The notes beneath the pieces are model-generated. The model did no database searches, was not told the DNA's origin, and worked only from the letters and a program-made list of their open reading frames with translations. The position numbers and the translations under genes are program-made. Below are positions 6,310 to 57,885 of a stretch of 64,000 nucleotides of DNA, in pieces (positions within the stretch are counted from its first letter, which is position 1; each line of letters starts with the position of its first letter). Origin of the DNA: Pandoraea anhela (GTDB taxonomy: Bacteria > Pseudomonadota > Gammaproteobacteria > Burkholderiales > Burkholderiaceae); NCBI RefSeq assembly GCF_902459655.1, contig NZ_CABPSB010000019.1, positions 45,556-109,555 of the forward strand, read 5' to 3'.

Positions 6310-6389
6310 ACCGTCTCCTCGCTACCGTCCCACGTTTGTCGCCGATGCCGGCTTCGCGGGTCGTCGACGCGCGAAATGCCGGCGTCGGC

Positions 6390-6971: not shown

Positions 6972-7290
6972 TGATGCCCCGAGAGAGTGACGTCGACAGG
7001 CGGCAAGTGTAGCAAACCGCCCGATGTGCAGCGCTCGAAGTGACCGAGCGGTTCGCGCTTCGTGTTTCGACACTCACAACCGCCGCGACGGCCCGCGGGC
7101 ATCGCTCACATCGCGCGACGACGCCCGCTCCCTTGTGTGGCGCGGCCATTTACGGCGAGGGCCACATCGCACAGCGTGTCGCGCCGCGCAAAGCGGCGCG
7201 GATCGGGATAGAGTGTCGTCTGACGGCGAATGCGAGCGGCACGCGCGGCCCCCGGCGCCGTCGATCCAAATTCCCTGACGGAGATTGAAG
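6972..7290. other. Intergenic region between ruvA and a 2-hydroxyacid dehydrogenase gene
   Basis: About 319 GC-rich bases between divergent genes. No credible gene, repeat or strong promoter was seen; GGAG at 7280-7283 is the ribosome site of the dehydrogenase. Confidence 0.5.
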
Positions 7291-36705: not shown

Positions 36706-39189
36706 TCAGTACGTTCGGCCCAACTGGAAGTAGAGGTTGTTGCGTCCGCCCGGCGCCATTGCAAACCCGACATAGATCGGACCGAACGAAGTGGTCAGGG
36801 CGGTGAAGAACGTAACGCTTCGTTTGAGCGTGCCGCTGCCGAAGGCGTCGTCTGCCGACCAGACATTGCCGGCTTCGAGACTCACCCCGACGAACAACCG
36901 GCGAACCGGCGATGCGGTAAACGACGCAATGCGGTTCATGTATGTAATGTTGCCGTACATCATGGCGTTGCCGGCCAGCTGGTCCGCGCCATATGCCGAC
37001 AAATGCTGGAAGCCCCCCAACGTGAAGCCGAACGGGTTCGTTACGTTTACGCCACCGAAGTTGTTGCCCGCTTCGAGCGTCGCGCTCACGCTGTGCCGCC
37101 CGTAGCTCGTCGCGACGATGCCCTTGCCATAAACCTCCGTATAGCTGTTGGTGCCGGCGAATAGCGAGCGCTCCGCCCGTAATTCGGTGAAGTAGCCGCG
37201 ACGCGCGAATTGCGGGTCGTCCAACTGATCGATCACGAGGCGGGCGCGGGCGCTGAGTTGTCGTCCGGAGATATCGGGGAACAGAAGCTCTCGGGACGCG
37301 CCCGGTTCGTCGTCTTCGTCGTTGCCGATGGGCAGGTTGTATTGCGGCACGGCCGTGCCATGCGTGTAAGCGACACCGATACGGAAGTCGCCCAGGGTCG
37401 AGACCGGAAAGCCGATGTCGACGCCGGCGCGCTCAGTCGTGAGCCGGTAGCGGGTGAGCTTGACGTCGCCCGAGTCGTTGTAAATATTCGCGTGTCGCCG
37501 CTGAATGTCGACATAGGGCGCGATGTACGCGCCCCACGGATTGCCGAACGGCTGGCGCAACTCCGCATGAAGCTCCGCGACGTCGCTGCCGAGCGTCGTA
37601 TCCACCCGCGCTTCGAGCCCGCTGCTCGTGAGCCACGGTCGACGATAGCCGAGATGCAAACGGAAGCTGCCCTCCTCTTTCGACGTCGCCGACAGGCCCA
37701 GACCGAATAGCAGAAAGTTCGGGCCCCAGCGTTTTTCCTGCGCCGTAATCACGAGCGTGTTCTGACCGCTCTCTTCGACGAACTGTTGCGTGACGCTCTC
37801 GAAGTCGTCTTCGTTGACGAGCGCGAGGAGGTCCTTGTTGACCACGGCCGGATCGTAGATGTCGCCCTCCTTCACATGCAGCGCCGCGCGAATCTTCTGT
37901 GCCGGGACCACGCCGCGCGAGTTGATCTCGATCTTCGCGATGCGCACCGCCGGGGCACGCGAGGTCGAATGCGCCGCGCGCCAGACCGCGTATTGCGACG
38001 GGCTCAACGCGAGCGGCTCAAGCTTGGGCAGCGCCGCCAGCGCAGCGGCTTCGCCTGCGGCGATCGCTTGCGAGGCGTTCTCGAAATCGGTGAAGGTCAG
38101 GCGCCCCAGATCGGGCTGAATCAGCACATCGCTTGCGCGCAGTTGGTCGCGCTGTCGCGCGACGTTCTGGCGAATCAGAATGCCGACCATCTGCTGGAAG
38201 ACGTCCGCCGGAGACGACAGCGCATCGAGCGGGCGCAGCGGCGAGCCGATATCCACCGCGATCACGATGCCCGCGCCCATCGAACGCGCGGTTTCCACCG
38301 GCAGATTACTAACGATGCCGCCGTCGACCAGCGTGCGGCCACCGACATCCACCGGCGAAAAAAGACCGGGCAACGCCATGCTCGCGCGAATGGCCTGCGG
38401 CAACGAACCATGATCGAGCACGATCATTTGTCCCGTCTGCAAGTCGGCTGCGATCGCGCGAAACGGCACCGGTAGCTTGTCGAACGATACCGAACCGCCG
38501 ACGGCCGGCGTCCACTCCTGCAACAACGCCTGAAGCCTGTTGCCATGCACCAGTCCCGACGGAAGCTGGAAACCGTTGCGTCCGAATCCGAGAGAAAAAC
38601 TGTCGACGTAGTAGCGCTCGTCTTCCCGCTGCGACTGCGGCAGATCGCTGCGATCGGTGACGTCGAACGCGATGTCGGCGAGGTTCACATGCTCCAGACG
38701 CGCGCGCATGTCCTGTGCGCTCAGACCGCTGGCGTACAGACCGCCGACCACCGCTCCCATGCTGGTCGCGGCAACGCAGTCCACCGGGATACGATGCGCC
38801 TCCAGCACCTTGAGCACGCCGAGATGGGCATAACCCCGCGCACCGCCGCCCGAGAGCACCAGCCCGACCGACGCGCGCCCGGGCTCACCGCCTGCGACGC
38901 GGCAGGCAGCGCCGGTGGCGGGAGCGTCCGCCGGAATGGGGGCCATCGGCGCTGTCGACGTGGCCAATGTCGTCCATGCCGACGATGGAGCCAATGGAGC
39001 CGATGGAGCCGAGGCAGCGGCGGGAGCGGTCCGGGCGGCCGCCTTTGCGGCTTGCCCCGAAGCAGCCCACGGCGCCGCGCAGACGAGCGGTGCACCGAGC
39101 GCCCACAGCAGGGCGACCGTCAGCCAGCGCGTACCGAGCCAGCGAAAACCGTCCCGGTGGCGCTTTTGGAGGTTCGGGAAACGGCTCAT
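36706..39189 (-). CDS. Patatin-like phospholipase with C-terminal BamA-type barrel
   Basis: An 827-aa exported protein. A signal peptide is followed by an Ala/Pro/Ser-rich linker (about 42-90), then a patatin domain with oxyanion loop GGGARG (114-119), nucleophile Ser143 in ATSMG and Asp289 in VDGG. The first Gly of the usual GxSxG is Ala here. A POTRA-like segment (about 410-480) and a C-terminal outer-membrane beta barrel ending with an aromatic residue (FQLGRTY) match PlpD-type type Vd autotransporters and related proteins. It would hydrolyse lipids at the cell surface or outer membrane. It converges with the kinase gene. Confidence 0.9.
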   Translation of the reverse strand: MSRFPNLQKRHRDGFRWLGTRWLTVALLWALGAPLVCAAPWAASGQAAKAAARTAPAAASAPSAPLAPSSAWTTLATSTAPMAPIPADAPATGAACRVAGGEPGRASVGLVLSGGGARGYAHLGVLKVLEAHRIPVDCVAATSMGAVVGGLYASGLSAQDMRARLEHVNLADIAFDVTDRSDLPQSQREDERYYVDSFSLGFGRNGFQLPSGLVHGNRLQALLQEWTPAVGGSVSFDKLPVPFRAIAADLQTGQMIVLDHGSLPQAIRASMALPGLFSPVDVGGRTLVDGGIVSNLPVETARSMGAGIVIAVDIGSPLRPLDALSSPADVFQQMVGILIRQNVARQRDQLRASDVLIQPDLGRLTFTDFENASQAIAAGEAAALAALPKLEPLALSPSQYAVWRAAHSTSRAPAVRIAKIEINSRGVVPAQKIRAALHVKEGDIYDPAVVNKDLLALVNEDDFESVTQQFVEESGQNTLVITAQEKRWGPNFLLFGLGLSATSKEEGSFRLHLGYRRPWLTSSGLEARVDTTLGSDVAELHAELRQPFGNPWGAYIAPYVDIQRRHANIYNDSGDVKLTRYRLTTERAGVDIGFPVSTLGDFRIGVAYTHGTAVPQYNLPIGNDEDDEPGASRELLFPDISGRQLSARARLVIDQLDDPQFARRGYFTELRAERSLFAGTNSYTEVYGKGIVATSYGRHSVSATLEAGNNFGGVNVTNPFGFTLGGFQHLSAYGADQLAGNAMMYGNITYMNRIASFTASPVRRLFVGVSLEAGNVWSADDAFGSGTLKRSVTFFTALTTSFGPIYVGFAMAPGGRNNLYFQLGRTY

Positions 39190-44245: not shown

Positions 44246-47200
44246 TCAGAAGCCGATGCCCAGGACAACGTGCTCCGGTGTCGCCGAGACCAGCGTCGAG
44301 CTTTGGTCGGCCACATCGTCGTACGAGAAGCCGTAGGCCTTGCGATCGATGCTGTGATCGTGCCAGAACTTCGCGTAGGCGTTGTACGGCCCCTTGGCAT
44401 ACCAGGCCGACGACGGGGCTGCCCACTGCGTGTCGTCTTCCATGATATGGCGGTTCAGTGCTGCGGCCACCTGGGCTTCGATCGCCAGCTCCGTCGCATT
44501 GCCGGAGGCCAGCGGACCCTTCGCTTCGAGCATGTCCTGCGTGTTCGGATGGTTCACGTAGTACTTGCCGCCCACAAAGGCGCCATTGCCCTGATCGATT
44601 TCGGTGAACACAAGCTGGTCGCCGACCGTCTGGCCAACAAACTTGCGTGCATTACCCCACATCAACAGCGTCAGCGTGTGCGTACGGTAGTACTCCCACA
44701 TGCTGTCGATGTAAGCATCGAAGTACTTGCCGTTCGGTTGTCCCGCGTCGAATCCGCCCTTGCTCGGCGCCATGATGCGATACGGCGACGGGTTGGTCGG
44801 CAGGAACTCCGGCGGCACTTCCTTCTGGTAGGCCGCGAAGATCGATGCGCGCGACTCGGTGATACCCGAGCGAACGTGCGTCGTGCGGTTGCTGCCGTAC
44901 ACGTCTTCGGTCAGCGGGAAGCCGAACTGATCGACTTGCGTGTTGTTCAGCCACAGGCCGTTATCGCCATAGGTGAATTCATACCAGTCGAAGTAGACGT
45001 CGATGTTGGGATCCGTCGGGTTGCGGACATCCGGGCCGGCGAAGCCGATCTGGTTGGCCGCATCCTTCAGGGTGCGGATATACAACGGCGAGCCCAATGC
45101 CACGAAGGCACGCGCGCCGAAGAGCTTCGGGAACTTCAACTGCTTCGCCTGCGCCAGCGTGAAGAAGTAGTTGCTGTAGTTCTTGCCGCCCTTCGTCAGA
45201 TGGCCCGGTGCGTCGTTATCGGTGTCCGACATCAGCACCGTCGTGCCGTCCGGCTTGAGATAGACGAACTGGCCATTCTTCGCCGGATCGTGCGCGATAA
45301 CCGCAACGTAAATCTGATCGTCGCGGTAGGCGCCGTTCGTGTTGTTACGCAGCTCGACACCGATCTGATTCGGATAAATCGGATAGTCCGGGATCGTGCC
45401 GTCGTCCGTCGCAGCCGGCGCGTTAGCGCCGCCAGCCCCGCCTTTCGGCGGGACAGCGCTATTGCCACTACCACCCCCGACCGTCACCGGCGTGACCGTC
45501 AACTTGGCCGGCGTGCTGGTGACGTTCGAGTTGCCGTCGTCGGCCACCACGCCGTACTGCGCGCCGTTGTCGTCCAACGTCGTGGCCGGCGTGTCGTACG
45601 ACGGGTTGGCCGTCACGGCAACCTGCTGGCCGTTGCGGAACCACGTGTACGACAGGTTAGGCGCACCGATCACCGACACCGAGAAGTGCGCCGACTGGCC
45701 CACTTGCACGGTTTGCGGTTGCGGCTGCTGATCGAAACTCAGCTTCGGACCATAGATTTCGAACTCGAACAGCGAGTAGCCGTACTGCGTTGCCCGCTTG
45801 ACACCCTGCATGCGCACATAGCGTGCAGCGACCGTCTGGAACGACAGATTTTCGGTCGCCCCACGCCCCGTGTTCTGGGTGTAGACCGTCTTCCAATCGC
45901 CATCCTTGCCGGTGTCGGACACCTGAATCAGATACTGCTTGCCATACGCAAATTCCCACTTAAGGCGAACCAGGTTGACCGCCTGCGACTTGCCGAGGTC
46001 GATCGTGATGCTGGCCTTGTCGGCGTCCGGATTGTCCAGGAACAGCGATGCCCACCGCGTCTTGATGTCGCCATCGTTGACGTTGGTCGCCGCGCTGAAA
46101 CCCTCGTACTCCACCGGCGTCGACGTCACCGTCTTGTTCAGCGCGAGGTTCGTGTCGTTGGACGGCACGCCATCCACGACATTGAGCGTTGCACCGTCGC
46201 TCAGCTTGCTTGCACCGCCGGCGCTGACGAGCACGGTGAACTGCGCACCGTTGTCCTCCAGCTTGACGGCCGGCGTGGTGTAGCTCTGGGCCACGGCGCC
46301 GTCGATCTGCACGCCGTCGCGATACCACTGATAGGACAGCGCACCGGTGCCGGTCGCACTGACCGTAAACGTTGCCGTCTTGCCAATGGACGCCGACTGG
46401 CTGATCGGCGGGGTGACGATCACGGGCGGCGGGACTTGCGGGTTGTTGTTACCCGGATCCGGCTGAGCCTCCGTCACCGTGAGCTTGAACTTCTGGCTCG
46501 TCACGCTTGCCGACGCGTTGCTCGCCACCACGTAATACTGCGAGCCGTTGTCCTCGAGCTTGAGCGGCGGGGTGTCGTAGACTGGCGCCAGCGACGTGTA
46601 CACCGGTGCGTCGTTGGTCTCCCCTGCCTTCGCCACGCGGTACCACTTGAACGTGATCGGCGCCGAACCGTCGATGCCGACAGCGAAATGCGCCGACTTG
46701 CCGACCGTGCCCGTCACGTCCTCGGGCTGCACCGTCAACTTGGGCGGCGTCACCTGCGGCGTGCCGGACACACACAGCACCCAACCCGGCGCGTTGTCGA
46801 TGAGGCCTTTACGCTCCTCGCCGGCTTGCGTGATCAGGAAGGCCTGCGTCTTGTCCTCCGGCACGATGGTCGAGGTCCACGTCGTCCACTTTTCCGGGAA
46901 CGCGCATGCGGCGGTGTTGTTGCCGGCAATCGAAAGCGCTTCGTCATGCGTCGGCAGACGCTTGCCCTGCGCTTCGCACCACGCCTTTGCGGCAAGCTGC
47001 GTGAACTGCGCACCGGCCTGCGTGAGCGTGTATTGCTTGCGATTCCACACCAGCGTGCTGCTGTTGTCTCTGACCGTCGCGGGATCGAGCACCGAATAGC
47101 GTTCGTGGGTGTAAAGACTTCCGTCGTTACAGTTCGGAACGTCATAGACCTCGATTTCGTACAGCGAGTAGCCATAGGCCGTGGCGCGCTTCTGCCCCAC

Positions 47201-50200
47201 CATGCGCACATAGCGCGCAGTGATCGTGGGGAAGGTGAAGTCGTCCACGCCACCGGCGAAGCCCGCCGGCGATTCGTATGCCTTGACGAAGTCGACGTTG
47301 TTGTTCGACACCTCGATGCGATACGAACTGGCGTAAGCCGCTTCCCAACGCAGAATCATGCGGTTGATCGGCACCGGCGCCCCGAGATCGACCGTGATCG
47401 ACGCGTTGTCGCCGTCCTTCTGGTTCGAACCCCAGCGTGAACTGACATTACCGTCGGTCACGTTGCTCGCCGGCAGCCCCTGCGGATCCTGGTTGCTCGC
47501 GGAGAAAGCCCGCTTGCCACGCGCAAGGTTCACGCCCGGCGCCGCCTGACTCAGCGTTGCCGGATCGCTCACGACCGTCTTGCCCGAGGCGTTCGTGACC
47601 GCCACCGTGTACTTGCCGAGGTCCTTCGGCGCGACCGCGTCGATGGTGAGCGTCGGCGAATCGCCGCCCACCACACCCGACGGGCCGGTCCAGAGGTAAT
47701 GCAACGGCTTCGAACCTTCGGCTTCCACGGTAAACGTCGCGCTCTGGTTGAGCGCCGCGATGGTATCGCCCGGACCGCGCGTGATCGTCGGCGCGGTTGC
47801 GGCACCGACCTTGAGCACCACCGGCGAGGACGTCACCTGCGCGAGGGGGTTCTTGACGAACACCTTGAACAACGCGCCGTCGTCCGCTGCCGTCACCACG
47901 GGCGTCGTGTAGGTCGCCGACTTCGCGCCGTCGATCGCGACGTCGTTACGGAACCACTGGTACTCGATCACGGGGGAACCCGTCACCGCGACGGTAAACG
48001 TCGCCGTCTGACCGATCACGACCGTTTGCGCAACGGGTGGCGTGTCGATCGTCACCGCACGCGCCGGGATGACCGACAGTACCGCGTCGCCCGACGTCAC
48101 GACGCCTGCGGCATTGCGCACGCGCACGCCGTAGACATGGCCGTTGTCGGCGCTGGTCGCGGCCGCCGTATCGAGACTGCTGCCGGTGGCACCCGGAATG
48201 TCCTGGTGATCGCGCTGCCATTGGAACTGCATGGGCGCGGCCCCGGAGACCGACACGTCGAAGTGTGCGGGCTGACCGACGCTGACCTGCTGGCTGGCCG
48301 GCGGCACCACGATCTGCGGCGCCGACGTCGCAGCTTGAATCGGCACGACGACCGGCGCCTTGACGTCATACGACACCGTGCCTGCGCCCAGCCCCGGCGA
48401 GGTGGCGCTCACCGTCACGTGGCCCGTCTGGAACGTGCTGCGAATCGCGATACGCGTCAGCCCCCCTTCGGCGGCGAGTTCGTGATCGCCCGGCGAGTGA
48501 TAGCTCGCGGGCTTGTCCATCGTCACGATGTGATCCCAGCCGCCACGGTAGTTGGCCACCGCCTTGTTATCGACGTCGAACGTGATGAGGTTCGAGGCGT
48601 CCGGTACGACAACGCCGTTGACATCGACCACCTGCGCGGTCACGAATGCGGCGTCCGATCCGTTGGCCGTGATCTGGAAGGTCTGACCATCCGGACGAAC
48701 GACGTTCGGCACCATCGAAAGCACAATGTGATGCGGTGCACCGGCCGTGACCTGTTCGTCGATCACCGGCTTGCCGTCGTAAGTGACTTGCGCGCCGAAG
48801 CCGTCGACGCAAAGCGCCTGCACCTTGCCGGGCGCCCAGGGCACGTCGTCCCAGTGCACTTGTCCGACCAGGCCGGTGGTGTCGCCCTTGTCGTTGTCGG
48901 TCGCCGTCGCCAGCGTATTGGGCTTCTGATCGCCGCCTTGCTGCACGCCGTTGACCATGAGACGCACCGCCGGGCAGTTACTGAACGCATTCACACGCAC
49001 CGGCCCCTTGCGGTTCCAGGTGTTGGCGAGATGGACCACCGGCTTGATGTTGTAGGGCGTCCAGGCTGCCTGATACGCGTAGTACATCAGACGCGGGAAG
49101 CGGTTGCCGTCGGTCATCGACTCGCCCAGCGAGCGCACGAACGGGCCCGTGGGGTTCTGGATGGCATCGTAAGTCTTGCCGCTCCAGTAGAACCCGTCTT
49201 CCCCGGGTTCGTCGGCCAGATACCAGTGAGCGATACCGAAGGCGTTGGCGAGCACGCCTTTGCGCCAGTTGTTGAGGAACGGACCGACGAGATCCATCTC
49301 CTTGTCGTAGTTCTCGCGGAAGTCCCCACGCCCCCAATACTCGGCAGACCATGCGGGCTTGTTCGGGAACTGGTGCTTCACGCCGACTTCGCATCCTTCG
49401 AGCGTGCAGCTCAGGATGTCGCCGTTGTCGCCGTTGGGCGTGCGATCCGCTTGCGCGCGCGTGTTGATCGGATCCCATGTACGGCCGATGACGGCGAGCT
49501 TCTTCGCGAAGTCCGTCTGCATGATGCCGTTGTTCGCTTCCCAGGCCAGCACCGACGGGTTATTGCGGTCGCGCACGATCATTTCGCGATGCAGCTCCTG
49601 CTTGAGCAGGTACTTGTCGATCTTGTTCTGCGGGCAGTCCTTCGTCGGCGCCGACAACTGGTAGCAGTCGTTGAAGCCGTTTTCACCGTCTCCGCTGGGC
49701 TGCACGACGAAAATGCCCAGCGCGTCGGCGGCCTGAAGGAACTCCGGACTCGACGACGAGTGGCCCGGACGATACAGATTGCCGCCCGCGTTTGCCAACA
49801 GCTGAAGATCGCGCCACTGCTGCTCTTCCGGCACGGCGGTGCCGAGGGCCGGATAGTCGTAGCGTCCCGACCCGCCCCAGAGATGCGTGGCAAATCCGTT
49901 GACGCTCGGGAAATTGGTGTCCCAGGTAATCGTGCGGATCCCCAGCGGGCTTTCCGTCGAATCGACCACTACGCCGCCCACGCTGACGAGGTGGAACACG
50001 CGATACAGGTACGGTTTGCCGCGAGGCACGTTGTTCGGATACCAGAGCGTCGGATTGTCGACCGTCAGGTTCTGGGTCACGAGGGTCGGGTGCAGTCCCG
50101 GACCGGCGTTGGGCGGCAGAATCACGTCGCTCTTGGACTGCGCGACGACCTTGCCCTTCGCGTCGACGATCTGCGTAGTGACCTGTGCGGTCTGCGCAAT

Positions 50201-51004
50201 GCCGGACTCGTTCAGGACGTTCGTGCCGATCTGAATGTTCGCAGAGGCCGCCGTACCCGAGCCGTCCGTGGCCGGGCTGTCGATGCTCACGGTCGAGACG
50301 TGCGTCCCCCAGGTGTTCAGCACCGGGTAGACGTTCAGCGGGATGTGAACCGGGTCCGTCACGTACATGTAGACCGGACGGAAAATGCCGGTGTCGCCCT
50401 GACCGAAGCGGAAAGCACCGGAGAAGTCCGGATCCTGGAACCAGTCACCGTTCGATGCCACTCGCACGGCGATCACGTTGTCGGTCACGCCGTCGGCGGT
50501 AACCGCGTCGGAGATATCGACGGCAAACGGCAGGAAGCCGACCACGTGCGTGGCGTCGGGGTTGCGAACGCTTTGATTGCGGATCAGCTTGCCGTTGATG
50601 TAGACCTGAGCGCCCATGTGAGCGCCCTCGAATTCCACGATGATCTTGCGGCCGGCGTATGCCTTGTCGAGCTTGAAGTGCTTGCGATACCACCCCAGGC
50701 CGTTCGGTGCCTCACCGCCGCTTCGAATGTTCGAGAACATTTCGTTCTCGTTCATCGAATGCGGAATGCCGACCGACTTCCAGCCCGAATCGTCGAATCC
50801 CGGCTGCGAGACGCCATTGGGTTCGGCATTCCCCAGAAACTTCCACGGAGTCGCACCGAGATTGATCTTTACACGCGCCGAAGCGGGAACCGGTATCGGC
50901 GGCGATGTCCCATTGGTTTGTGGAGTGGCTGTGCCCGCCACCGCGAACATGCAAGCCAACGCGATGCTCGTGCATGTCCACGCGAATGAATGTCGTCTTC
51001 TCAT
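44246..51004 (-). CDS. Giant secreted GH2-type / GH64 multidomain glycosidase
   Basis: A 2252-aa exported protein. After a signal peptide (about 1-26) come a GH2 sugar-binding domain (about 47-225), beta-sandwich (232-372) and TIM-like barrel (375-660) with likely nucleophile Glu555 (SAEYWGRGDF), then a DUF4982-like region and a Big-type domain. Next are Ig-like domains near 895, 985 and 1075, a discoidin (F5/8C) domain at about 1159-1290, a lectin/Lcl-like domain (1291-1410), Ig domains near 1420 and 1525, a second discoidin (1619-1752) and an Ig near 1755. The C-terminal 385 residues (from about 1869) are a GH64 beta-1,3-glucanase with Glu2009 and Asp2025, spaced 16 apart as in known laminaripentaose-producing enzymes. 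The normal GH2 acid/base Glu is absent (WEANNG, 488-493). It probably degrades fungal or plant beta-glucan. Confidence 0.85.
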   Translation of the reverse strand: MRRRHSFAWTCTSIALACMFAVAGTATPQTNGTSPPIPVPASARVKINLGATPWKFLGNAEPNGVSQPGFDDSGWKSVGIPHSMNENEMFSNIRSGGEAPNGLGWYRKHFKLDKAYAGRKIIVEFEGAHMGAQVYINGKLIRNQSVRNPDATHVVGFLPFAVDISDAVTADGVTDNVIAVRVASNGDWFQDPDFSGAFRFGQGDTGIFRPVYMYVTDPVHIPLNVYPVLNTWGTHVSTVSIDSPATDGSGTAASANIQIGTNVLNESGIAQTAQVTTQIVDAKGKVVAQSKSDVILPPNAGPGLHPTLVTQNLTVDNPTLWYPNNVPRGKPYLYRVFHLVSVGGVVVDSTESPLGIRTITWDTNFPSVNGFATHLWGGSGRYDYPALGTAVPEEQQWRDLQLLANAGGNLYRPGHSSSSPEFLQAADALGIFVVQPSGDGENGFNDCYQLSAPTKDCPQNKIDKYLLKQELHREMIVRDRNNPSVLAWEANNGIMQTDFAKKLAVIGRTWDPINTRAQADRTPNGDNGDILSCTLEGCEVGVKHQFPNKPAWSAEYWGRGDFRENYDKEMDLVGPFLNNWRKGVLANAFGIAHWYLADEPGEDGFYWSGKTYDAIQNPTGPFVRSLGESMTDGNRFPRLMYYAYQAAWTPYNIKPVVHLANTWNRKGPVRVNAFSNCPAVRLMVNGVQQGGDQKPNTLATATDNDKGDTTGLVGQVHWDDVPWAPGKVQALCVDGFGAQVTYDGKPVIDEQVTAGAPHHIVLSMVPNVVRPDGQTFQITANGSDAAFVTAQVVDVNGVVVPDASNLITFDVDNKAVANYRGGWDHIVTMDKPASYHSPGDHELAAEGGLTRIAIRSTFQTGHVTVSATSPGLGAGTVSYDVKAPVVVPIQAATSAPQIVVPPASQQVSVGQPAHFDVSVSGAAPMQFQWQRDHQDIPGATGSSLDTAAATSADNGHVYGVRVRNAAGVVTSGDAVLSVIPARAVTIDTPPVAQTVVIGQTATFTVAVTGSPVIEYQWFRNDVAIDGAKSATYTTPVVTAADDGALFKVFVKNPLAQVTSSPVVLKVGAATAPTITRGPGDTIAALNQSATFTVEAEGSKPLHYLWTGPSGVVGGDSPTLTIDAVAPKDLGKYTVAVTNASGKTVVSDPATLSQAAPGVNLARGKRAFSASNQDPQGLPASNVTDGNVSSRWGSNQKDGDNASITVDLGAPVPINRMILRWEAAYASSYRIEVSNNNVDFVKAYESPAGFAGGVDDFTFPTITARYVRMVGQKRATAYGYSLYEIEVYDVPNCNDGSLYTHERYSVLDPATVRDNSSTLVWNRKQYTLTQAGAQFTQLAAKAWCEAQGKRLPTHDEALSIAGNNTAACAFPEKWTTWTSTIVPEDKTQAFLITQAGEERKGLIDNAPGWVLCVSGTPQVTPPKLTVQPEDVTGTVGKSAHFAVGIDGSAPITFKWYRVAKAGETNDAPVYTSLAPVYDTPPLKLEDNGSQYYVVASNASASVTSQKFKLTVTEAQPDPGNNNPQVPPPVIVTPPISQSASIGKTATFTVSATGTGALSYQWYRDGVQIDGAVAQSYTTPAVKLEDNGAQFTVLVSAGGASKLSDGATLNVVDGVPSNDTNLALNKTVTSTPVEYEGFSAATNVNDGDIKTRWASLFLDNPDADKASITIDLGKSQAVNLVRLKWEFAYGKQYLIQVSDTGKDGDWKTVYTQNTGRGATENLSFQTVAARYVRMQGVKRATQYGYSLFEFEIYGPKLSFDQQPQPQTVQVGQSAHFSVSVIGAPNLSYTWFRNGQQVAVTANPSYDTPATTLDDNGAQYGVVADDGNSNVTSTPAKLTVTPVTVGGGSGNSAVPPKGGAGGANAPAATDDGTIPDYPIYPNQIGVELRNNTNGAYRDDQIYVAVIAHDPAKNGQFVYLKPDGTTVLMSDTDNDAPGHLTKGGKNYSNYFFTLAQAKQLKFPKLFGARAFVALGSPLYIRTLKDAANQIGFAGPDVRNPTDPNIDVYFDWYEFTYGDNGLWLNNTQVDQFGFPLTEDVYGSNRTTHVRSGITESRASIFAAYQKEVPPEFLPTNPSPYRIMAPSKGGFDAGQPNGKYFDAYIDSMWEYYRTHTLTLLMWGNARKFVGQTVGDQLVFTEIDQGNGAFVGGKYYVNHPNTQDMLEAKGPLASGNATELAIEAQVAAALNRHIMEDDTQWAAPSSAWYAKGPYNAYAKFWHDHSIDRKAYGFSYDDVADQSSTLVSATPEHVVLGIGF

Positions 51005-51156: not shown

Positions 51157-51381
51157 TCACCTGACTGGATTTTCACGAACGCCTTCAACATCTTTCATCG
51201 AAAAGCCTTCGAAATGCTCAACTATTTCACGTATCAAAACAAAATAATCGTGCAGATCAAGCGCTGAAAAGGCGATCTCCGGTTGTCGCAGAGCAATTCT
51301 CAAGCACGCCTCGTAAGAAAAACCTCCCATCGTCCGGTAGCTTTTGATCGAAATTCGGATACCTAACTGAAGAATTGACAT
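51157..51381 (-). CDS. Possible small hypothetical protein
   Basis: A 74-aa reading frame from an ATG at 51381, with balanced composition and helix-like stretches (IAFSALDLHDYFVLIREIVE). AAGGGA lies about 9 bases before the start. It sits in an AT-rich gap upstream of the large glycosidase gene on the same strand. I recognise no family and chance cannot be excluded. Confidence 0.3.
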   Translation of the reverse strand: MSILQLGIRISIKSYRTMGGFSYEACLRIALRQPEIAFSALDLHDYFVLIREIVEHFEGFSMKDVEGVRENPVR

Positions 51382-51598: not shown

Positions 51599-53056
51599 TC
51601 AGTTGCGCGCGGACACCAGCGGGCGTCGCCCCGACCAGGGCATGACCTGTTCGAGCACGGATGCAACTTGCAGCAACATGGCTTCATTGCCAATCTTCGC
51701 CGTGATCTGAACACCAATCGGCAGCCCCGCCTCGCTCATGCCCAGCGGTAGCGAGATCGCGGGTTGCCCTCCCACATTGAAGGGGAAGAGGAATGCGGTG
51801 TCCTTGAGAAACGCTTCGTTGTACGCCGCCCAATCGCCTGTCGACATATCGAAAGCCGACCCAATGGGGAACGGGAGTCGGCACGACACCGGAGAGACGA
51901 AGAGATCGAATGCGTCGAGTGAATTGGCGATCTCCATGCCGCCATGCCGCATCGCATCGATATCTGCCGCATGCGAGACCGCGTCGATGCTTTTCCCCAT
52001 TTCGATCGCCGACCAGGTGTACGGTTCGAGTGTCTCTTGCGTCGGAGCGACGCCTAACGCTTTTGTCGAACCGGCGAACTGAAGCGCTGCCTGCACAGCG
52101 AGAATTCTCGTGTAAGCGCGCCAGCAACCCTGGATATCGAAGCTCAGATCGTGGGCGTCGACATGATGCCCCAGCGTGGCCAGTTGCACCGCGACGTCGT
52201 GCACCGTTTTTGCGATTTCCGGATCGACCGCCCCCCCTTGCGGCGACCGCACAGTGAATCCACAGCGCAAGCGCTCCGGTGCTTTCTCGGACAGCGACAG
52301 AAAAGAGCGATCCGGCTTGGGCAGCGCATAGGGCTCGCCCGGCGTGCCACCGGCAACGACATCGAGGAAGGCCGCCGTATCGCGCGTGGTACGAGACAGG
52401 CAAAGGAAGACCGCGCCCCCATGCCAGAAATCCGCCGCGGGCGCGATAGAGGCACGCCCACGCGATGGCTTGAGTCCGACCGTTCCGCACATGGCCGCCG
52501 GCATGCGAATCGAGCCTGCGCCGTCGCTCCCCTCCGCCAGCGGCACCATGCCCGAGGCGACCGCCGACGCCGCCCCTCCGCTCGAGCCCCCGGAGGTCAG
52601 CGCGGTGTTCCAGGGATTGCGGGTCGGCCCGTTGAGTTTCGGCTCCGTGGTCAACGCCCAGCCGTTCTCGGGAACGTTGGTAAACCCGAAAGGAATCAGT
52701 CCGGCGGCACGCATCCGCCGCACCGCCTCGTTGTCGGCGGCCGGCACATTGTTATGCAGCCGGTAATAACGGCTGCTGTTCGTCGATTGCAGACCGGTTG
52801 CGGTCGTTGCAAGATCCTTGAGCAAAAACGGAACGCCGGCGAATACGCCGTCGCCGGGCGGCAATCTCGCCCGCTTGCGGGCATCGTCGTAGCAGCGCTG
52901 GCTTACGGCGTTGAGCGTCGGATTGAGCTCGTCCGCGATCTGGATCGCCACCTCCATCAACTCCGTCGCGCTCACCTCACCGGCCTTCACCAACGCGGCG
53001 AGTCCCAGCGCGTCGTGTTGCAAATACACTTCTCTCATCGGGTTGTGCGTCGTCAT
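51599..53056 (-). CDS. Amidase-signature enzyme
   Basis: A 485-aa hydrolase of the amidase signature family with the Ser-cisSer-Lys triad: Lys80 (VPFLLKDL), Ser158 (GGSSGG) and Ser182 (GSDGAGSIRMPA). The 24-residue spacing between the two Ser is that of the family. The closest described type by pattern is the 6-aminohexanoate cyclic dimer hydrolase/aryl-amidase group. The ATG at 53056 has AAGGTGG 6 bases upstream. It is the last gene of a minus unit after a nucleoside-symporter-family permease and a porin, so it may act on the imported compound. Confidence 0.9.
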   Translation of the reverse strand: MTTHNPMREVYLQHDALGLAALVKAGEVSATELMEVAIQIADELNPTLNAVSQRCYDDARKRARLPPGDGVFAGVPFLLKDLATTATGLQSTNSSRYYRLHNNVPAADNEAVRRMRAAGLIPFGFTNVPENGWALTTEPKLNGPTRNPWNTALTSGGSSGGAASAVASGMVPLAEGSDGAGSIRMPAAMCGTVGLKPSRGRASIAPAADFWHGGAVFLCLSRTTRDTAAFLDVVAGGTPGEPYALPKPDRSFLSLSEKAPERLRCGFTVRSPQGGAVDPEIAKTVHDVAVQLATLGHHVDAHDLSFDIQGCWRAYTRILAVQAALQFAGSTKALGVAPTQETLEPYTWSAIEMGKSIDAVSHAADIDAMRHGGMEIANSLDAFDLFVSPVSCRLPFPIGSAFDMSTGDWAAYNEAFLKDTAFLFPFNVGGQPAISLPLGMSEAGLPIGVQITAKIGNEAMLLQVASVLEQVMPWSGRRPLVSARN

Positions 53057-53127
53057 GTTATCCACCTTCATTAAAAATTCGATAGGTCCGCCGTGGCGAA
53101 CGGCGTACCTACCCCTTATCAATCAAG

Positions 53128-54345
53128 TCAACCGAGCGCGCGCGCCGTCACCCCATCCCGGGCACGTTCGCGGCGAAATCCAATCAGATGCACGAGCGCG
53201 GCAACCGCCGAGAGCGCCATCGGGTACAGCCAGAAGCTCTGCCAGCCGGCGAGATTGAGCGCGGTCGCGCCGGCCTGGAGGCTCGTGTTGTAGATGTGGC
53301 CGGCAACCTGTGCACCAACGAACATGCCCAACCCGTAGGTAAAGAACATGACGAGCCCTTGCGCCTGCCCTTTGGCTGCCGGCCCGGCGACCTTTTCGGT
53401 ATAGACGAAAGCCGTCACGAACAGAAAGTCGTAGCAGATGCCGTGAATGGCAATACCGATGAACACCAGCGTGAGGCTCGGTGGCAGCGCGCCGGTGGAA
53501 TAGAGCGCATAGCGTGCGACCCAGGCGCACATGGCGAGCAGAATCATCCATTTGTATCCGACGTGTCGGATCAGCAGCGGAATCAACGCAATCGCAACCA
53601 GGTCGCTCAGTTGGCCTGCCGTCATCACCGTGCCCACTCGCTGGAACCCCACCGCGTCGGCAAACGTCGCGGTATATGCGTAATAGAACGTGAGCGGAAT
53701 CATGATGAGGAACATGCACCCCAGCAGCACGGCGAACTGACGGTGCTTGAGCAAAGCCAGTCCCTGAGCGAAGGTATTGGCAGACTGTGATCCCGGATTG
53801 TCCTGCGGCAAACGTCGGGGCAACGTCAGGCTCAGCCCCCCCAACACCAGCGATGCGACCGCCGCAATCGTGAACACCGACGTGGAATCCGACAGCCCTG
53901 CCTCGCCGATGAAAAACCCCGGCACGATCCATCCGACATTCGCGAACAATCTGAGGTAAGGGAAGTTTTCCGCCTGCCCGAGATGCGCAAACGCAATATT
54001 GTTCGTCAGCGATAGCGTCGGCATGAAACAGAGGTTATAGACGAACAGCGTCACGAGCAGGCCCGTGCTGTCGCCCCGCTCGATGAACGATGGCACGGCG
54101 AAGAGCAACAAGCCGCCAACGACGTGCAGCGCACCGAGCAGCCGCTCGGCGCTGAAGTATTTATCGATCAGATAGCCGGCAATGAAAGGGGTAATCATCG
54201 ACGCCACCGGGCCAAGCGAGTACAGATTCCCGATGTGCGCGCCCAGACCGTGTTTGCTCAGGACGAGCCCTGCCGTCACGAACCATGCGCCCCAGACGAA
54301 GAAGTTCAGGAACATGACCGCCGCGATACGAATATAGATGCTCAT
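53128..54345 (-). CDS. MFS transporter, nucleoside:H+ symporter family
   Basis: A 405-aa membrane protein with 12 predicted helices. The opening RIAAVMFLNFFVWGAWFVTAG and the helix region YFSAERLLGALHVVGG match the NupG/XapB/YegT family (Nucleoside:H+ symporters). Many members outside enteric bacteria carry other substrates. It lies between a porin and an amidase gene on the same strand; the three could take up and hydrolyse one compound. Confidence 0.88.
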   Translation of the reverse strand: MSIYIRIAAVMFLNFFVWGAWFVTAGLVLSKHGLGAHIGNLYSLGPVASMITPFIAGYLIDKYFSAERLLGALHVVGGLLLFAVPSFIERGDSTGLLVTLFVYNLCFMPTLSLTNNIAFAHLGQAENFPYLRLFANVGWIVPGFFIGEAGLSDSTSVFTIAAVASLVLGGLSLTLPRRLPQDNPGSQSANTFAQGLALLKHRQFAVLLGCMFLIMIPLTFYYAYTATFADAVGFQRVGTVMTAGQLSDLVAIALIPLLIRHVGYKWMILLAMCAWVARYALYSTGALPPSLTLVFIGIAIHGICYDFLFVTAFVYTEKVAGPAAKGQAQGLVMFFTYGLGMFVGAQVAGHIYNTSLQAGATALNLAGWQSFWLYPMALSAVAALVHLIGFRRERARDGVTARALG

Positions 54346-54356
54346 GATGCGTCACC

Positions 54357-55460
54357 TCAGAACGTATGCTTCAGGCCGAGGCGAAACGCCGCCTGTGCCC
54401 GGGTGGACGATGCGCCGAAGCCGGTGATCTGAGCGACGCTCGCGCTTCCGGCAGCGCGCTGGTAGACGGCCATCAGGTAAATGTCGGTCCGTTTGGAAAG
54501 CAGATAGTCGGCCATGAAATTCACCTGGTGATATTTCGGCGAGGCGCCTGTCGAGTTGTCGTTGCCGAACGTGTACGTGTAGGCGCCGAGCAGATACCAC
54601 TCAGGCCGGAGCTGATAGCCCAACGCCAGTTCGACGTTCTTGAAACTGGCGTTGTGACCGGAGGCGCCGCCCACGAATACCGTGTTGGTGAAGCTGCCCA
54701 TCAGCTTGGCCTTGCCGAACGCATAACTGATCCCCGCGCCCGCAATGTTTTCGTACTCGGCGTTAGGCAAGTAACTGCCGTACACGGTGTTGGTGTATGT
54801 CGCCCTGTTCATGTAAAACCCATCGAGCCCCGTGCCCGGCGACGCCGCTCGCAGGAATGCCGCGCCGAAGCCGATCGGACCGTTTGCATAATTCACGCCG
54901 ATGCTCCACACGCTGTTGCGATGGAAGTCGCCGACAACGTTGCCGAACGCATACAGACCGCCGAACGACAGCCCGTTGTAATCGATGCTCCGATACTTCA
55001 CCGAATTGCTCACGATGAAACCGTTATCCGTGTTGTCCACGTCCTGCGGATGCGAAAAATACCAACCGGCATAGGCGCCATTAGACGTATAGGGCGCTAC
55101 GAAATCGACAATCGAGTCGTATTGCCGGCCAAACGTCAGCGTGCCCGACGTCTTGCTCGACAGGCCCATCTTCGCCTGCCGGTTGAACGCCCTGCCCGAC
55201 CCGTTCCCGGTAAATCCGTCGAAACCGTTCTCCAGTTGAAACACCGCCGAAATTCCCCCGCCCAGATCTTCACTGCCCCTGAACCCGTAGTTGCTTCCGA
55301 CAGGAACGCCGCTCACCGCCTTCCACCCGCTCCTGCCGCCATCGTTGCTCACATATGTCAATCCACTGTCTATCAATCCATACAACGTCACGCTGCTCTG
55401 CGCTTCGGCGCCCGACGAACACAGCGCTCCCACTACCCCAACAACGGCCAATCGCTTCAC
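54357..55460 (-). CDS. Outer-membrane porin, Burkholderia type
   Basis: A 367-aa trimeric general porin of the Gram-negative porin_4 family. A signal peptide ends AEAQ, then the mature start SSVTLYGLIDSGLTYVSNDG and C-terminal Phe (RLGLKHTF) are typical. I chose the GTG at 55460 because AGGAG at 55467-55471 lies 6 bases upstream and the signal peptide is then of normal length. The upstream ATG would add 11 polar residues. It starts a minus-strand unit with permease and amidase, divergent from the RpiR gene. Confidence 0.93.
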   Translation of the reverse strand: MKRLAVVGVVGALCSSGAEAQSSVTLYGLIDSGLTYVSNDGGRSGWKAVSGVPVGSNYGFRGSEDLGGGISAVFQLENGFDGFTGNGSGRAFNRQAKMGLSSKTSGTLTFGRQYDSIVDFVAPYTSNGAYAGWYFSHPQDVDNTDNGFIVSNSVKYRSIDYNGLSFGGLYAFGNVVGDFHRNSVWSIGVNYANGPIGFGAAFLRAASPGTGLDGFYMNRATYTNTVYGSYLPNAEYENIAGAGISYAFGKAKLMGSFTNTVFVGGASGHNASFKNVELALGYQLRPEWYLLGAYTYTFGNDNSTGASPKYHQVNFMADYLLSKRTDIYLMAVYQRAAGSASVAQITGFGASSTRAQAAFRLGLKHTF

Positions 55461-55748
55461 GATCTTCTCCTGTCCTTGCGATGACGCCGGCACGTTTTCG
55501 GGATGTGCCGGTCGTTTGCTGCGCCGTGGGGTACGGTTGTAAATAAAATATGGACAACTAATTTTTTTCTACTTGTGTTTTCGACATTCGATATGCGCGA
55601 TACGGGAACGTCGGCGGTGCCGCGCATGCCCGCAGACTTGCTACCATCTCCCCCGCCGGAGAACGTCAGTCAACCTTCGCTACATGCACCTCCGATTCAA
55701 GCGTATGCTTAAGAAATAATTTTTTCATTAGGTGTTACACTGACGAAT
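55461..55748. promoter_or_regulatory. Divergent promoter region of porin and rpiR
   Basis: AT-rich between about 55535 and 55580 and again from 55705. AGAAA (55712-55716) and TTTCA (55723-55727) make an inverted repeat with four paired bases just upstream of a -10-like TACACT (55736-55741). GTTGT and ACAAC arms near 55536-55560 are also present. The rpiR ATG at 55749 has no clear ribosome site. Confidence 0.4.
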
Positions 55749-56624
55749 ATGAAAAAAAATGACCAAACACTACTGGAGCGTATGCGCAGCGCCATGCAGA
55801 CGCTGAGTCCGGCCGAACGACGTGTCGCGATGACCTTGATCGCCGACTTCCCGATCACCGGACTGAAGACGGTCGTGGAAATCGCAGCGGCGTCCGGTGT
55901 GAGCCCGGCGACCGTGTCGCGATTTGCCGAAACGCTCGGCTATGGCAATTTCGCAGAGTTCCAGCGCGCGCTGCACGCCGACGTCGTGGCGCGCTTCGCT
56001 TCGCCGGGTGCGCTCTTCGAAACATTGCCCGACAAGCTCTCCGAAGGTGAGGGGGCAGACGCCGCGCTTACCCTGTTCAATCAGCTCGTGACGGACACGA
56101 TGAGCGCAACGGACGCCAGTGAGGTCGAAGCGCTCATCGATCACCTGGCCGACCCCAAGCGCACGATCTACTTCCTTGGGGGGCGTCAGACCGGATCCCT
56201 GGCACTGTATTTCCGGCAGCTCACGCATAATTTGCGCGCGAAAACGGTGCATATCGGCGGCATCGACGGCACTGCCGTGGACCTGCTCGCCGAGCTCGAT
56301 TCGCGTGCCACGCTCATCGCCTTCGACTTCCGACGCTATCAACAGGACACCGCGGACTTCGTCGCGGCAGCCGCTTCGCGCAAGGCGCAGATCGTGCTCG
56401 TGACGGACCCGTACATGTCGCCCGCCGTCAAGAACGCGCATCAAGTGTTCGTGTGCCACACGCGCAGCGGCGTGCCGTTCGATTCGTTCGTCAGTGTGCT
56501 GGCCTTCATCGACTTTGTGTGCCAGCAACTCTTCATTCGGCTGGGGCAAGACGCACATAACCGCATTACTCGACTGGAAAGTATTCGCGAAGCCGCAGGC
56601 GTGGAACACATGTTGAGAAAATAG
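55749..56624 (+). CDS. RpiR/MurR-family regulator
   Basis: A 291-aa regulator with an N-terminal helix-turn-helix (VVEIAAASGVSPATVSRFAE, about residues 38-60) and a C-terminal SIS domain (about 118-250, YFLGGRQTGSLALYF) that usually binds a phosphosugar. RpiR proteins with SIS domains also regulate non-sugar catabolism. It lies between the porin/permease/amidase unit and the amine-related unit and is the only regulator of the island in the window, so it is the likely controller of both (inference). Confidence 0.88.
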   Translation: MKKNDQTLLERMRSAMQTLSPAERRVAMTLIADFPITGLKTVVEIAAASGVSPATVSRFAETLGYGNFAEFQRALHADVVARFASPGALFETLPDKLSEGEGADAALTLFNQLVTDTMSATDASEVEALIDHLADPKRTIYFLGGRQTGSLALYFRQLTHNLRAKTVHIGGIDGTAVDLLAELDSRATLIAFDFRRYQQDTADFVAAAASRKAQIVLVTDPYMSPAVKNAHQVFVCHTRSGVPFDSFVSVLAFIDFVCQQLFIRLGQDAHNRITRLESIREAAGVEHMLRK

Positions 56625-56724
56625 ACACACTCGCCCGACCCCCACGCTTTATCGGTCGAGTGCGTCAAACCATTGCCTCATGCACGTCGGACTATGTTGC
56701 TCATTTGCCGATGTGCCTGTGTGC

Positions 56725-57867
56725 TCACACCCCCGCGAGCGGATAGATTCGCCGGGCGTTCCCCACGGAAATCGCCTCCGCAATGCGTTCCGCATCTGCG
56801 GGGGTGCACGCGCCGTCGGCAATCCAGCTGTCCAGCACCCGGCCCAGCATGAGGCGGAACTGCGCCGCGCCGAGGTAATGCAGTTCGGGCAACCCGAACG
56901 CGTCCGAACTGAACAGCTGTTTGTAGAACGGCCCCATTTCCATCGCGTGACGCATCGCGCTCAATGCCGACGGCCCCAGAAAATTCAGGATGGCGCCGAC
57001 GTCGTAGTACACGTGCTGGAAGATCTCTGCGAGCCAACCTGCTTCCCGGATGAACGGATAGTTGTGCAGCAGTGTGATGGGAACGCCCAGCGGCTCCGTG
57101 GCTTTAAGGAAATCGGTGAAGTGCGTCGGGTCGCACGCATGCATGTAGACATCGGGGTCGCCAAATCCGACATGCAGTTGCAGCGGGAATCGCTTCTCGC
57201 GACACACGTCGATCCCCATCCACAAGCCGAAGCGCAACAGCACCGTATCGCTCAGACGAGGGGCCTCGCCGCCTGACGTGTCGAGTGCGCGCAGCCAGCG
57301 CGACGCGGCCGCCTCCACTTCCTGCACGCTCGGGCGGGTCTGGTCGATCTTGAATGTCGACCGGTAAGCCACGACACTTTTCAGACCAACCGCGTCGACG
57401 CAACGCGCGCGAAGTTCCGCCTCGCAGCGCTGTGCGAACGTCGCGGCGTCACCGCCCTCTCGCGCGACCCCCTCGATCACGGATTCGATACGCACCACCT
57501 CACGTGCCGGGGCAGCGGCAAGCGCACTCACGCCCCCCACATCGGTCAGACGCGTCGAGCGGTGTCCGGTATCGACCAGGTAAATCCCGATCCCCGAGGC
57601 GCGCAGCAAACGGCGTCCCACTTCCTCCACACCCAGCGCCTGACGGCGCTCGACGTAGGCTTTCGGTGAAGCAAACGGCTCGAGATCGAGAACCGGCGCG
57701 CAGTGTCTGCGGATCAGCAGCCCCAGCGGCTTGTCGAACTGCGATGTGCCTTCCGGCGGCGGCATATAGCTCTCGGACAGAAGCGCTTCGAATCCGGTGC
57801 GATCGAGCGGCGCGCGAATGGTGCCGTGGCAATGGTGGTCGATCAATGGATGCTTGATGTCGATCAT
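56725..57867 (-). CDS. Amidohydrolase related to the N-terminal half of FluG
   Basis: A 380-aa metal-dependent amidohydrolase of the TIM-barrel type. The N-terminal metal motif is LIDHHCHGTI; later LQLHVGFGDPD and LLHNYPFIREA carry further His ligands, and FSSDAFGLPE the catalytic Asp region. In fungal and plant FluG/NodGS such a domain is fused to a glutamine-synthetase domain; here the neighbouring gene upstream encodes just that. The pair may hydrolyse or form gamma-glutamyl amides of an amine. It is the last gene of a four-gene minus-strand run. Confidence 0.83.
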   Translation of the reverse strand: MIDIKHPLIDHHCHGTIRAPLDRTGFEALLSESYMPPPEGTSQFDKPLGLLIRRHCAPVLDLEPFASPKAYVERRQALGVEEVGRRLLRASGIGIYLVDTGHRSTRLTDVGGVSALAAAPAREVVRIESVIEGVAREGGDAATFAQRCEAELRARCVDAVGLKSVVAYRSTFKIDQTRPSVQEVEAAASRWLRALDTSGGEAPRLSDTVLLRFGLWMGIDVCREKRFPLQLHVGFGDPDVYMHACDPTHFTDFLKATEPLGVPITLLHNYPFIREAGWLAEIFQHVYYDVGAILNFLGPSALSAMRHAMEMGPFYKQLFSSDAFGLPELHYLGAAQFRLMLGRVLDSWIADGACTPADAERIAEAISVGNARRIYPLAGV

Positions 57868-57885
57868 GATGTCGTATCGATGAGG

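What the first reader, a model, noticed from the sequence alone, without database searches (positions are those of the whole stretch)
44246..51004. GH2-type and GH64 glycosidases fused in one 2252-residue exported protein
The N-terminal third has the GH2 three-domain order and the last 385 residues form a GH64 beta-1,3-glucanase with both catalytic residues (Glu2009, Asp2025). Between them lie six Ig-like domains, two discoidin domains and a lectin-like domain. I know of no described enzyme with this combination. Such a chain could bind a beta-glucan surface, cut the backbone with GH64 and act on side groups with the GH2 part, which would suit attack on fungal or oomycete walls.
Basis: partly seen in the sequence, partly recalled or inferred. 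Interest (0 to 1): 0.8.

Follow-up and report, generated by a model that had tools for sequence, protein, structure and literature searches.

The report
Giant secreted two-headed glucan-degrading protein
A soil bacterium makes a giant exported protein that joins a beta-1,3-glucan-cutting enzyme to a second sugar-enzyme-like head lacking its usual catalytic acid; the same design recurs in distant bacteria, often beside export genes, and may serve to attack fungal or similar cell walls.

Summary
The 2252-residue fusion at 44246-51004 (-) is real. Pfam finds all GH2 domains, Ig-like repeats, two F5/8 domains, a weak Lcl_C lectin-like domain and a C-terminal GH64 with both catalytic acids. It is no sequencing accident: the genome (Pandoraea) holds a second, 2666-residue version, and GH2-like plus GH64 modules share one open frame in 13 genes from Pandoraea, a second Burkholderiales family and Granulicella (Acidobacteriota).

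Two points change the interpretation. First, the GH2 acid/base glutamate is glycine (Gly493) in 16 of 16 aligned family members, while the nucleophile (Glu555) and a set of barrel residues stay invariant; 24 of 24 control GH2 genes keep the glutamate. So the GH2-like head is either an enzyme with a displaced acid (Glu441 or Glu489) or a binding module. Second, type II secretion genes sit beside the gene in six Pandoraea and three Paraburkholderia loci. In Pandoraea the linked GspF occurs in exactly the 6 of 32 genomes with the gene (one of them with its GH64 end interrupted). The window copy itself stands apart from that cluster.

Best reading: a type-II-secreted, wall-binding beta-1,3-glucanase with an unorthodox GH2-like partner. 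Substrate, export route and fungal target are inferred, not shown.

The parts
44246..51004 (-). whole gene, 2252 aa, GH2-like to GH64 fusion protein
50915..51004 (-). residues 1-30, signal-peptide-like N-terminus; read by eye, no predictor run
   Evidence: sequence
48335..50872 (-). GH2-like module, residues 45-890 (sandwich, Ig, TIM barrel about 340-660, DUF4982, C5)
49526..49528 (-). Gly493, at the position of the GH2 acid/base Glu (WEANNG, normally W-x-x-G-N-E)
49340..49342 (-). Glu555, retained GH2 nucleophile (AEYWG)
49682..49684 (-). Glu441 (DGENGF, loop after strand 3 of the barrel), invariant; first candidate for a displaced acid/base
   Evidence: role inferred
49538..49540 (-). Glu489 (WEANNG), invariant where the 24 control GH2 genes have Ser or Gly; second candidate
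   Evidence: role inferred
47555..48334 (-). Ig-like domains 1-3, about residues 891-1150
   Evidence: Ig_3; boundaries approximate
47144..47530 (-). DS1, F5/8 type C domain, residues 1159-1287
46805..47104 (-). Lcl_C (lectin-like) domain, residues 1301-1400; E 4e-6, below Pfam cut-off, found in the same position in the other family members
46175..46777 (-). Ig-like domains 4-5, about residues 1410-1610
   Evidence: boundaries approximate
45749..46153 (-). DS2, F5/8 type C domain, residues 1618-1752, close to chitosan-binding CBM32 of a Paenibacillus enzyme
45485..45742 (-). Ig-like domain 6, about residues 1755-1840
   Evidence: boundaries approximate
44249..45370 (-). GH64 beta-1,3-glucanase module, residues 1879-2252
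44978..44980 (-). Glu2009, GH64 catalytic position
44930..44932 (-). Asp2025, GH64 catalytic position

Best explanation
The gene encodes an exported, multimodular wall-attacking protein. It probably leaves the cell by a type II secretion system (encoded beside the 2666-aa sister gene elsewhere in this genome), clings to a polysaccharide surface through its discoidin/CBM32 and lectin-like domains on a stalk of Ig-like domains, and cuts beta-1,3-glucan with the C-terminal GH64 module. The N-terminal GH2-like head still has the nucleophile pocket but has lost the ordinary acid/base. I think it most likely still handles a specific wall sugar as a retaining enzyme with a displaced acid (Glu441 or Glu489); next most likely as a sugar-binding head. 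Shown from sequence: domains, catalytic residues present or absent, conservation, genetic linkage to the secretion genes. Inferred: secretion route, substrate, activity of each head, the fungal target.
For: GH64: Pfam E 1.9e-76; matches solved GH64 enzymes at E down to 7e-85 with Glu2009/Asp2025 in place, kept in all 12 fusion genes aligned and seen in the 13th, Granulicella. GH2-like head: 119 of 321 barrel columns invariant in 16 members from four lineages, including Glu555, Glu441, Glu489, Arg381-Tyr382-Asp383-Tyr384-Pro385 and Gly414-His415; dN/dS over the head 0.19-0.20 against three Pandoraea sister genes and 0.08 in the one pair of sister-gene orthologues tested. Binding: DS2 against chitosan-binding DD1/DD2 at E 2.2e-33; these are reported to bind chitosan specifically (PMC5635096 and PMC5651945, passages). 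Secretion: GspG and GspF beside the gene in 6 of 6 Pandoraea sister-gene loci (GspE in 5; the sixth stretch ends first) and GspG, F, E in 3 of 3 opened Paraburkholderia loci; a secretin in the same clusters; the linked GspF at 92% or more identity in exactly the 6 of 32 Pandoraea genomes that hold the gene. A T2SS of the relative Burkholderia rhizoxinica releases chitinolytic enzymes, and chitinase is needed to enter fungal hyphae (PMC4166002, abstract and passages).
Against: No activity, binding or secretion was tested. Pandoraea-type T2SS genes were not found beside the gene in 6 of 6 stretches (about 19.5 kb each) of the second Burkholderiales family, in the one Granulicella stretch, or anywhere in the 64-kb window, so linkage is not universal. 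GH64 is missing from the protein in G135 and in two unbroken Paraburkholderia genes, so the glucanase is not obligatory. Flanking genes in the window show no polysaccharide-use cluster. Beta-1,3-glucan also occurs in oomycetes, algae and plants. The co-occurrence with the T2SS partly reflects physical linkage and shared ancestry. Over longer distances dN/dS of the head rises to 0.30 (G331) and 0.37 (P. largidicola), with dS at or above 1.
Confidence: 0.6

Rival explanations
1. The GH2-like head is a pseudoenzyme: a sugar-binding or spacer module that adds affinity or specificity to the GH64 glucanase, with no catalysis.
For: Canonical acid/base Glu is Gly in 16 of 16 family members, and in the broken PGU19 copy.
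Against: The nucleophile Glu555 and two further acids (Glu441, Glu489) are invariant; pure binding would not obviously need the nucleophile. The head is kept in G135 and two Paraburkholderia genes where GH64 is absent, which does not suit a mere helper of GH64.
Confidence: 0.35
2. The GH2-like head is an active retaining glycosidase in which Glu441 (loop after strand 3) or Glu489 (strand 4) has taken over the acid/base role.
For: Glu441 and Glu489 are invariant in 16 of 16 members and are Glu also in the Persicobacter relative and, as aligned, in the solved protein 6hpd, both of which also lack the canonical Glu (Trp there). 0 of 24 control GH2 genes with the canonical Glu have Glu at either place. 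In the LacZ-type control L076 the column of Glu441 lies between the E and H of IETHG, which I recall (no call) as magnesium ligands beside the acid/base in E. coli LacZ.
Against: No usable structure: the AlphaFold model had mean pLDDT 40, so distances are unknown. The Glu441 column is a gap in 21 of 24 controls, so it sits on an inserted loop whose alignment says little. Glu489 lies four residues before the canonical site and may point deep into the barrel.
Confidence: 0.45
3. The target is not a fungal wall but another beta-1,3-glucan surface (oomycete, algal, plant callose) or a bacterial beta-glucan.
For: GH64 acts on beta-1,3-glucan in general (family knowledge); no gene next to the window copy points to fungi; the nearest relatives of the head outside the clade are a Bacteroidota (Persicobacter) plasmid gene and 6hpd, the latter recalled as from the alga-degrader Formosa agariphila (no call names its source).
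Against: DS2 is closest to chitosan-binding domains, and chitosan is typical of fungal walls.
Confidence: 0.35
4. The fusion is an assembly or sequencing artefact joining two genes.
For: None found.
Against: Both modules in one uninterrupted frame in 13 genes from separate loci, including the complete Granulicella plasmid NC_015065.1.
Confidence: 0.01

Closest known systems
GH64 beta-1,3-glucanases with solved structures (5h4e, 9vp9, 5h9x, 3gd0)
   Same: Sequence match over residues 1879-2252 with both catalytic acids
   Different: The solved chains are 367-444 residues long; here GH64 is the tail of a 2252-residue chain with a GH2-like head
6hpd, 'Beta-galactosidase (GH2)', and a Persicobacter plasmid gene
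   Same: 6hpd is the best PDB match of the GH2-like head (E 1.3e-68); both lack the canonical acid/base Glu and have the extra Glu pair
   Different: Persicobacter is 28.6% identical over the head; Trp, not Gly, at the acid/base place; about 990 residues, with no GH64 or F5/8 match in the Persicobacter protein
NCBIfam GalA / GalB beta-galactosidases (NF041462, NF041463)
   Same: Best curated GH2 models for the head (255.8 and 234.9 bits)
   Different: Far below their cut-off of 900 bits; catalytic acid missing
Paenibacillus sp. IK-5 chitosanase/glucanase discoidin domains DD1/DD2 (CBM32; 4zy9, 4zz5)
   Same: Closest solved relatives of DS2 (E 2.2e-33); reported chitosan-specific (PMC5635096, PMC5651945, passages; that these PDB entries are the IK-5 domains is recalled)
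   Different: There attached to a GH8 enzyme (PMC5635096 passage); here one of two (window) or four (sister gene) such domains in a GH2-like/GH64 chain
Granulicella tundricola WP_157478238.1
   Same: GH2-like head, three F5/8, Lcl_C and GH64 in one protein; head also has Gly at the acid/base place
   Different: Acidobacteriota; no Pandoraea-type T2SS genes found in the 26.7 kb around it
T2SS plus chitinolytic enzymes of Burkholderia rhizoxinica (PMC4166002)
   Same: A Burkholderiales T2SS exporting wall-degrading enzymes against a fungus
   Different: Chitinase/chitosanase, not a GH2-like/GH64 giant; shown by experiment there, only inferred here

Membership tests
GH64 beta-1,3-glucanase | Sequence match to the GH64 family model over its length | tested here: met
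   258.2 bits against a cut-off of 27, profile 2-368 of 370
GH64 beta-1,3-glucanase | Catalytic Glu and Asp | tested here: met
   Glu2009 and Asp2025 align with Glu and Asp of the solved enzymes; chain 5h9y, otherwise like 5h9x, has Ala where Glu2009 aligns; that these are the catalytic pair is recalled
GH64 beta-1,3-glucanase | Beta-1,3-glucan hydrolysis | not testable with these tools
   needs an assay
GH2 (canonical retaining hydrolase) | Sandwich, Ig and TIM barrel domains in order | tested here: met
   all three above Pfam cut-off
GH2 (canonical retaining hydrolase) | Nucleophile Glu | tested here: met
   Glu555, invariant in 16 of 16 members
GH2 (canonical retaining hydrolase) | Acid/base Glu of the N-E motif on strand 4 | tested here: not met
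   Gly493; Gly in 16 of 16 members, Glu in 24 of 24 control GH2 genes
GH2 beta-galactosidase GalA (NF041462) | Score above the curated equivalog cut-off | tested here: not met
   255.8 against 900 bits
CBM32 / F5/8 type C domains | Family match | tested here: met
   two stretches, 134.3 bits against 28.2; E 2.2e-33 to 4zy9
CBM32 / F5/8 type C domains | Chitosan-contacting residues and binding | not tested
   contact residues were not looked up; binding needs an assay
Type II secretion substrate with its own T2SS cluster | T2SS genes next to the gene | tested here: inconclusive
   met for the sister gene and its orthologues in 6 of 6 Pandoraea and 3 of 3 opened Paraburkholderia loci; not found at the window copy, in 6 of 6 stretches of the second family, or in Granulicella
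Type II secretion substrate with its own T2SS cluster | Export depends on that T2SS | not testable with these tools
   needs a deletion strain

The most novel reading that the evidence does not exclude
The clade defines a catalytically rebuilt GH2 type: the acid/base glutamate was replaced by glycine and its role moved to Glu441 on the strand-3 loop (or Glu489 within strand 4), and this enzyme is delivered, fused to a GH64 beta-1,3-glucanase and a wall-binding stalk, by a private type II secretion system.
Probability: 0.35. Interest if true: 0.7.

Novelty: new variant of a known kind. Interest (0 to 1): 0.5.

Why it matters
If the GH2-like head is active, GH2 has a second way to place its catalytic acid, in a group that seems to include a solved relative (6hpd), so the question is directly testable. 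If it is not active, a glycosidase barrel has been kept under purifying selection as a binding head in several lineages. Either way the protein and its linked secretion cluster are a compact candidate system for bacterial attack on beta-glucan walls, annotated in the two annotated records of it that I opened only as 'hypothetical protein' and 'beta-1,3-glucanase family protein'.

Tried and rejected
The second structure job was not used. A first attempt to read control GH2 genes picked wrong frames in many loci; it was replaced by a frame choice through tblastn and the exact columns were re-read. There L075 (failed row), L077 and L080 (no GH2 barrel in the aligned part) and nine loci without a hit (L103, L145-L152) were dropped from the count of 24; six loci that were the window gene, its sister or repeats were left out beforehand, and L131, L157 and the G814 row repeat genes already counted. 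My first idea that the G014 remnant marks the window locus was dropped: it sits at the sister-gene locus beside the ECF sigma gene. Artefact and chance readings were rejected. Long frames on the opposite strand of the gene were set aside, since the family matches lie on the minus strand. Term searches for 6hpd (two unrelated papers) and for GH64 with Pandoraea (one review, not opened) or with multimodular, discoidin, Ig-like, GH2, type II secretion (27 papers with three or more terms, 15 listed, one opened for passages) showed no paper on this protein. In one search the GH64 row for P. largidicola is meaningless, as that protein has no GH64.

Full report
WHAT IS THERE. The minus strand of the window holds one uninterrupted frame, 44246-51004, of 2252 codons. 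Pfam finds, in order: the GH2 sandwich, Ig and TIM-barrel domains, DUF4982 and GH2_C5, all above cut-off; six Ig-like stretches; two F5/8 type C domains; an Lcl_C lectin-like domain (E 4e-6, below its cut-off); and GH64 at the end (E 1.9e-76). The start reads like a signal peptide (by eye; no predictor was run).

WHOSE IT IS AND WHERE ELSE IT OCCURS. Its genome has a second gene of 2666 aa, 83% identical over window residues 1-1861, with four F5/8 domains. In the genus, 6 of 32 genomes hold the gene (in one, G008, the GH64 end is interrupted) and one more (G014) a C-terminal remnant. In a second Burkholderiales family, 6 of 43 genomes hold the GH2-like head, and 5 of these have GH64 in the same frame. 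Among the 30 best plasmid records listed (of 1395 with any GH2-like match), the head occurs in Granulicella tundricola (45.9% identical, fused to GH64, WP_157478238.1) and in five Paraburkholderia records at 51-55% identity. Of the three Paraburkholderia loci that I opened, two have an unbroken protein of about 1865-1885 aa without GH64 and one (PGU19) has the head split over two frames with a 46-residue GH64 leftover nearby. Genes with both modules in one frame number 13: seven in Pandoraea (G008's with the GH64 end cut off), five in the second family, one in Granulicella. No GH64 outside these genes and remnants was found in the 32 Pandoraea genomes at E <= 0.001. In an even sample of the class, the head matched 8 of 369 genomes; outside Pandoraea no match exceeded 37% identity. 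In an even sample of the order, GH64 occurs in 19 of 399 genomes; apart from the window genome's two genes and a 2344-aa frame in G331, the listed open frames are 463-942 aa.

THE GH2-LIKE HEAD LACKS THE USUAL ACID. Against solved GH2 enzymes the motif W-S-I-G-N-E reads W-E-A-N-N-G here, so the acid/base Glu is Gly493; the nucleophile is Glu555 in AEYWG. Gly493 is invariant in 16 of 16 aligned family members and is also Gly in the broken PGU19 copy. Control GH2 genes in the same alignment have Asn-Glu in 24 of 24 (dropped rows are listed under Tried and rejected). The head is not decaying: 119 of 321 barrel columns are invariant; dN/dS is 0.20 against the sister gene and 0.08 between two sister-gene orthologues, near GH64 (0.16 and 0.09); against G331 the barrel is 67% identical, the Ig stretches 46-50%. 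Over longer distances dN/dS of the head is 0.30-0.37 with dS at or above 1, which is hard to read. Two extra glutamates, Glu441 in QPSGDGEN and Glu489 in WEANNG, are invariant and are Glu also in the Persicobacter relative and, as aligned, in 6hpd, both of which have Trp in place of the canonical acid. None of the 24 controls has Glu at either place, but for Glu441 this is weak: 21 of the 24 have a gap there. This makes a displaced acid plausible, not proven; the structure prediction failed (pLDDT 40).

THE SECRETION LINK. Beside the sister gene lie divergent GspG, GspF and GspE genes, with further cluster genes and a secretin at C12:44072-44566. GspG and GspF are next to the gene in 6 of 6 Pandoraea sister-gene loci, GspE in 5 (the sixth stretch ends earlier); all three are next to the gene in 3 of 3 opened Paraburkholderia loci. 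In P. largidicola the cluster includes a secretin that also carries a cohesin-type domain, and pseudopilin-like proteins. GspF at 92% identity or more is present in exactly the six Pandoraea genomes with the gene, out of 32; eight further hits (two in G024, one each in five other genomes, and a second one in G001) are at most 42% identical. If the genomes were independent, such a match would have odds of 1 in 906,192 (32 choose 6), but they are related and the genes are physically linked, so that number overstates the case. Against the link: no such genes were found in the 64-kb window, in the six stretches of the second family, or around the Granulicella gene.

THE WINDOW COPY. DNA similarity to the sister loci runs from 44192 to 51157-51210 and stops, so the copy carries its own upstream stretch, part of which is highly conserved with the sister genes, but sits in other surroundings: a glycosyltransferase and a patatin/Omp85 gene on one side, an amidase, transporter, porin, RpiR-type regulator, amidohydrolase and glutamine-synthetase-like genes on the other. 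In the tree of the head it branches within Pandoraea, between G023 and the rest (100/99; midpoint root), so it is probably not a recent duplicate of the sister gene in this genome. It has two F5/8 domains fewer than the sister and, by eye, one Ig-like repeat fewer; the missing part lies just before GH64.

HOW IT PROBABLY WORKS. Export through the inner membrane, then out by the T2SS; attachment through F5/8 (CBM32-type) and Lcl_C domains; backbone cutting by GH64; and an accessory action of the GH2-like head on a sugar not yet known. The nearest solved relatives of DS2 are discoidin domains of a glucanase/chitosanase, recalled as DD1/DD2 of Paenibacillus sp. IK-5; passages of PMC5635096 and PMC5651945 call DD1/DD2 chitosan-specific, and the reference list of the latter names a paper on a chitosanase discoidin domain needed for binding to the fungal wall, of which I saw only the title. 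Pandoraea strains have been isolated from wood decayed by a white-rot fungus (PMC12628761, passages), but the four strains tested there, one of them Pandoraea, neither inhibited nor stimulated the fungus on plates. A T2SS of Burkholderia rhizoxinica exports chitinolytic enzymes, and the T2SS and chitinase are needed to enter fungal cells (PMC4166002, abstract and passages). A fungal target is thus the leading guess, not shown.

KNOWN OR NEW. Each module belongs to a known kind. A survey of GH2 architectures mentions F5/8 domains downstream in some GH2 proteins (PMC5145203, passages only). My paper searches listed none that describes this protein (listings only, open-licence library). I rate it a new variant of a known kind.

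Noticed in passing
window 44270-47440 and 47699-50989 (+); L035:6561-14345 (-); L038:6000-13937 (+): Very long open frames (1056 and 1096 aa here, 2594 and 2645 aa in relatives) run antisense to the gene; probably a by-product of high G+C codon use.
   Followed up: no
L037 about 5784-7121 (G008): The GH64 end of the G008 gene is split: about 1.3 kb of DNA between two pieces that overlap by five bases of the window gene (44407-44411), as after a transposon insertion.
   Followed up: partly
L036:9976-10529 (G014); same species as L034 (Pandoraea anapnoica): Only a C-terminal GH64 remnant with a stop is left beside the conserved ECF sigma gene; no linked T2SS gene was found in the 18-kb stretch.
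   Followed up: partly
L035:14746-17625: An ECF sigma factor, an unknown 377-aa frame and a cytochrome P450 (only a part of it in G008) lie on the other side of the sister gene in all six Pandoraea loci and in G014; possible regulator of the gene.
   Followed up: partly
L072:16324-17979, L115:14152-15540, L116:14262-15638, L117:14390-15931: In the second Burkholderiales family a smaller divergent GH64 protein lies next to the giant gene in four of six loci.
   Followed up: partly
L127:11847-14351 (Paraburkholderia largidicola): The linked secretin carries a cohesin-type domain and TPR repeats.
   Followed up: no
window 36706-39189 (-): Patatin-like phospholipase joined to an Omp85-type barrel.
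   Followed up: no
window 51599-59196: Gene group: amidase, nucleoside-type H+ symporter, porin, RpiR-type regulator, amidohydrolase, glutamine-synthetase-like protein; looks like a catabolic cluster.
   Followed up: no
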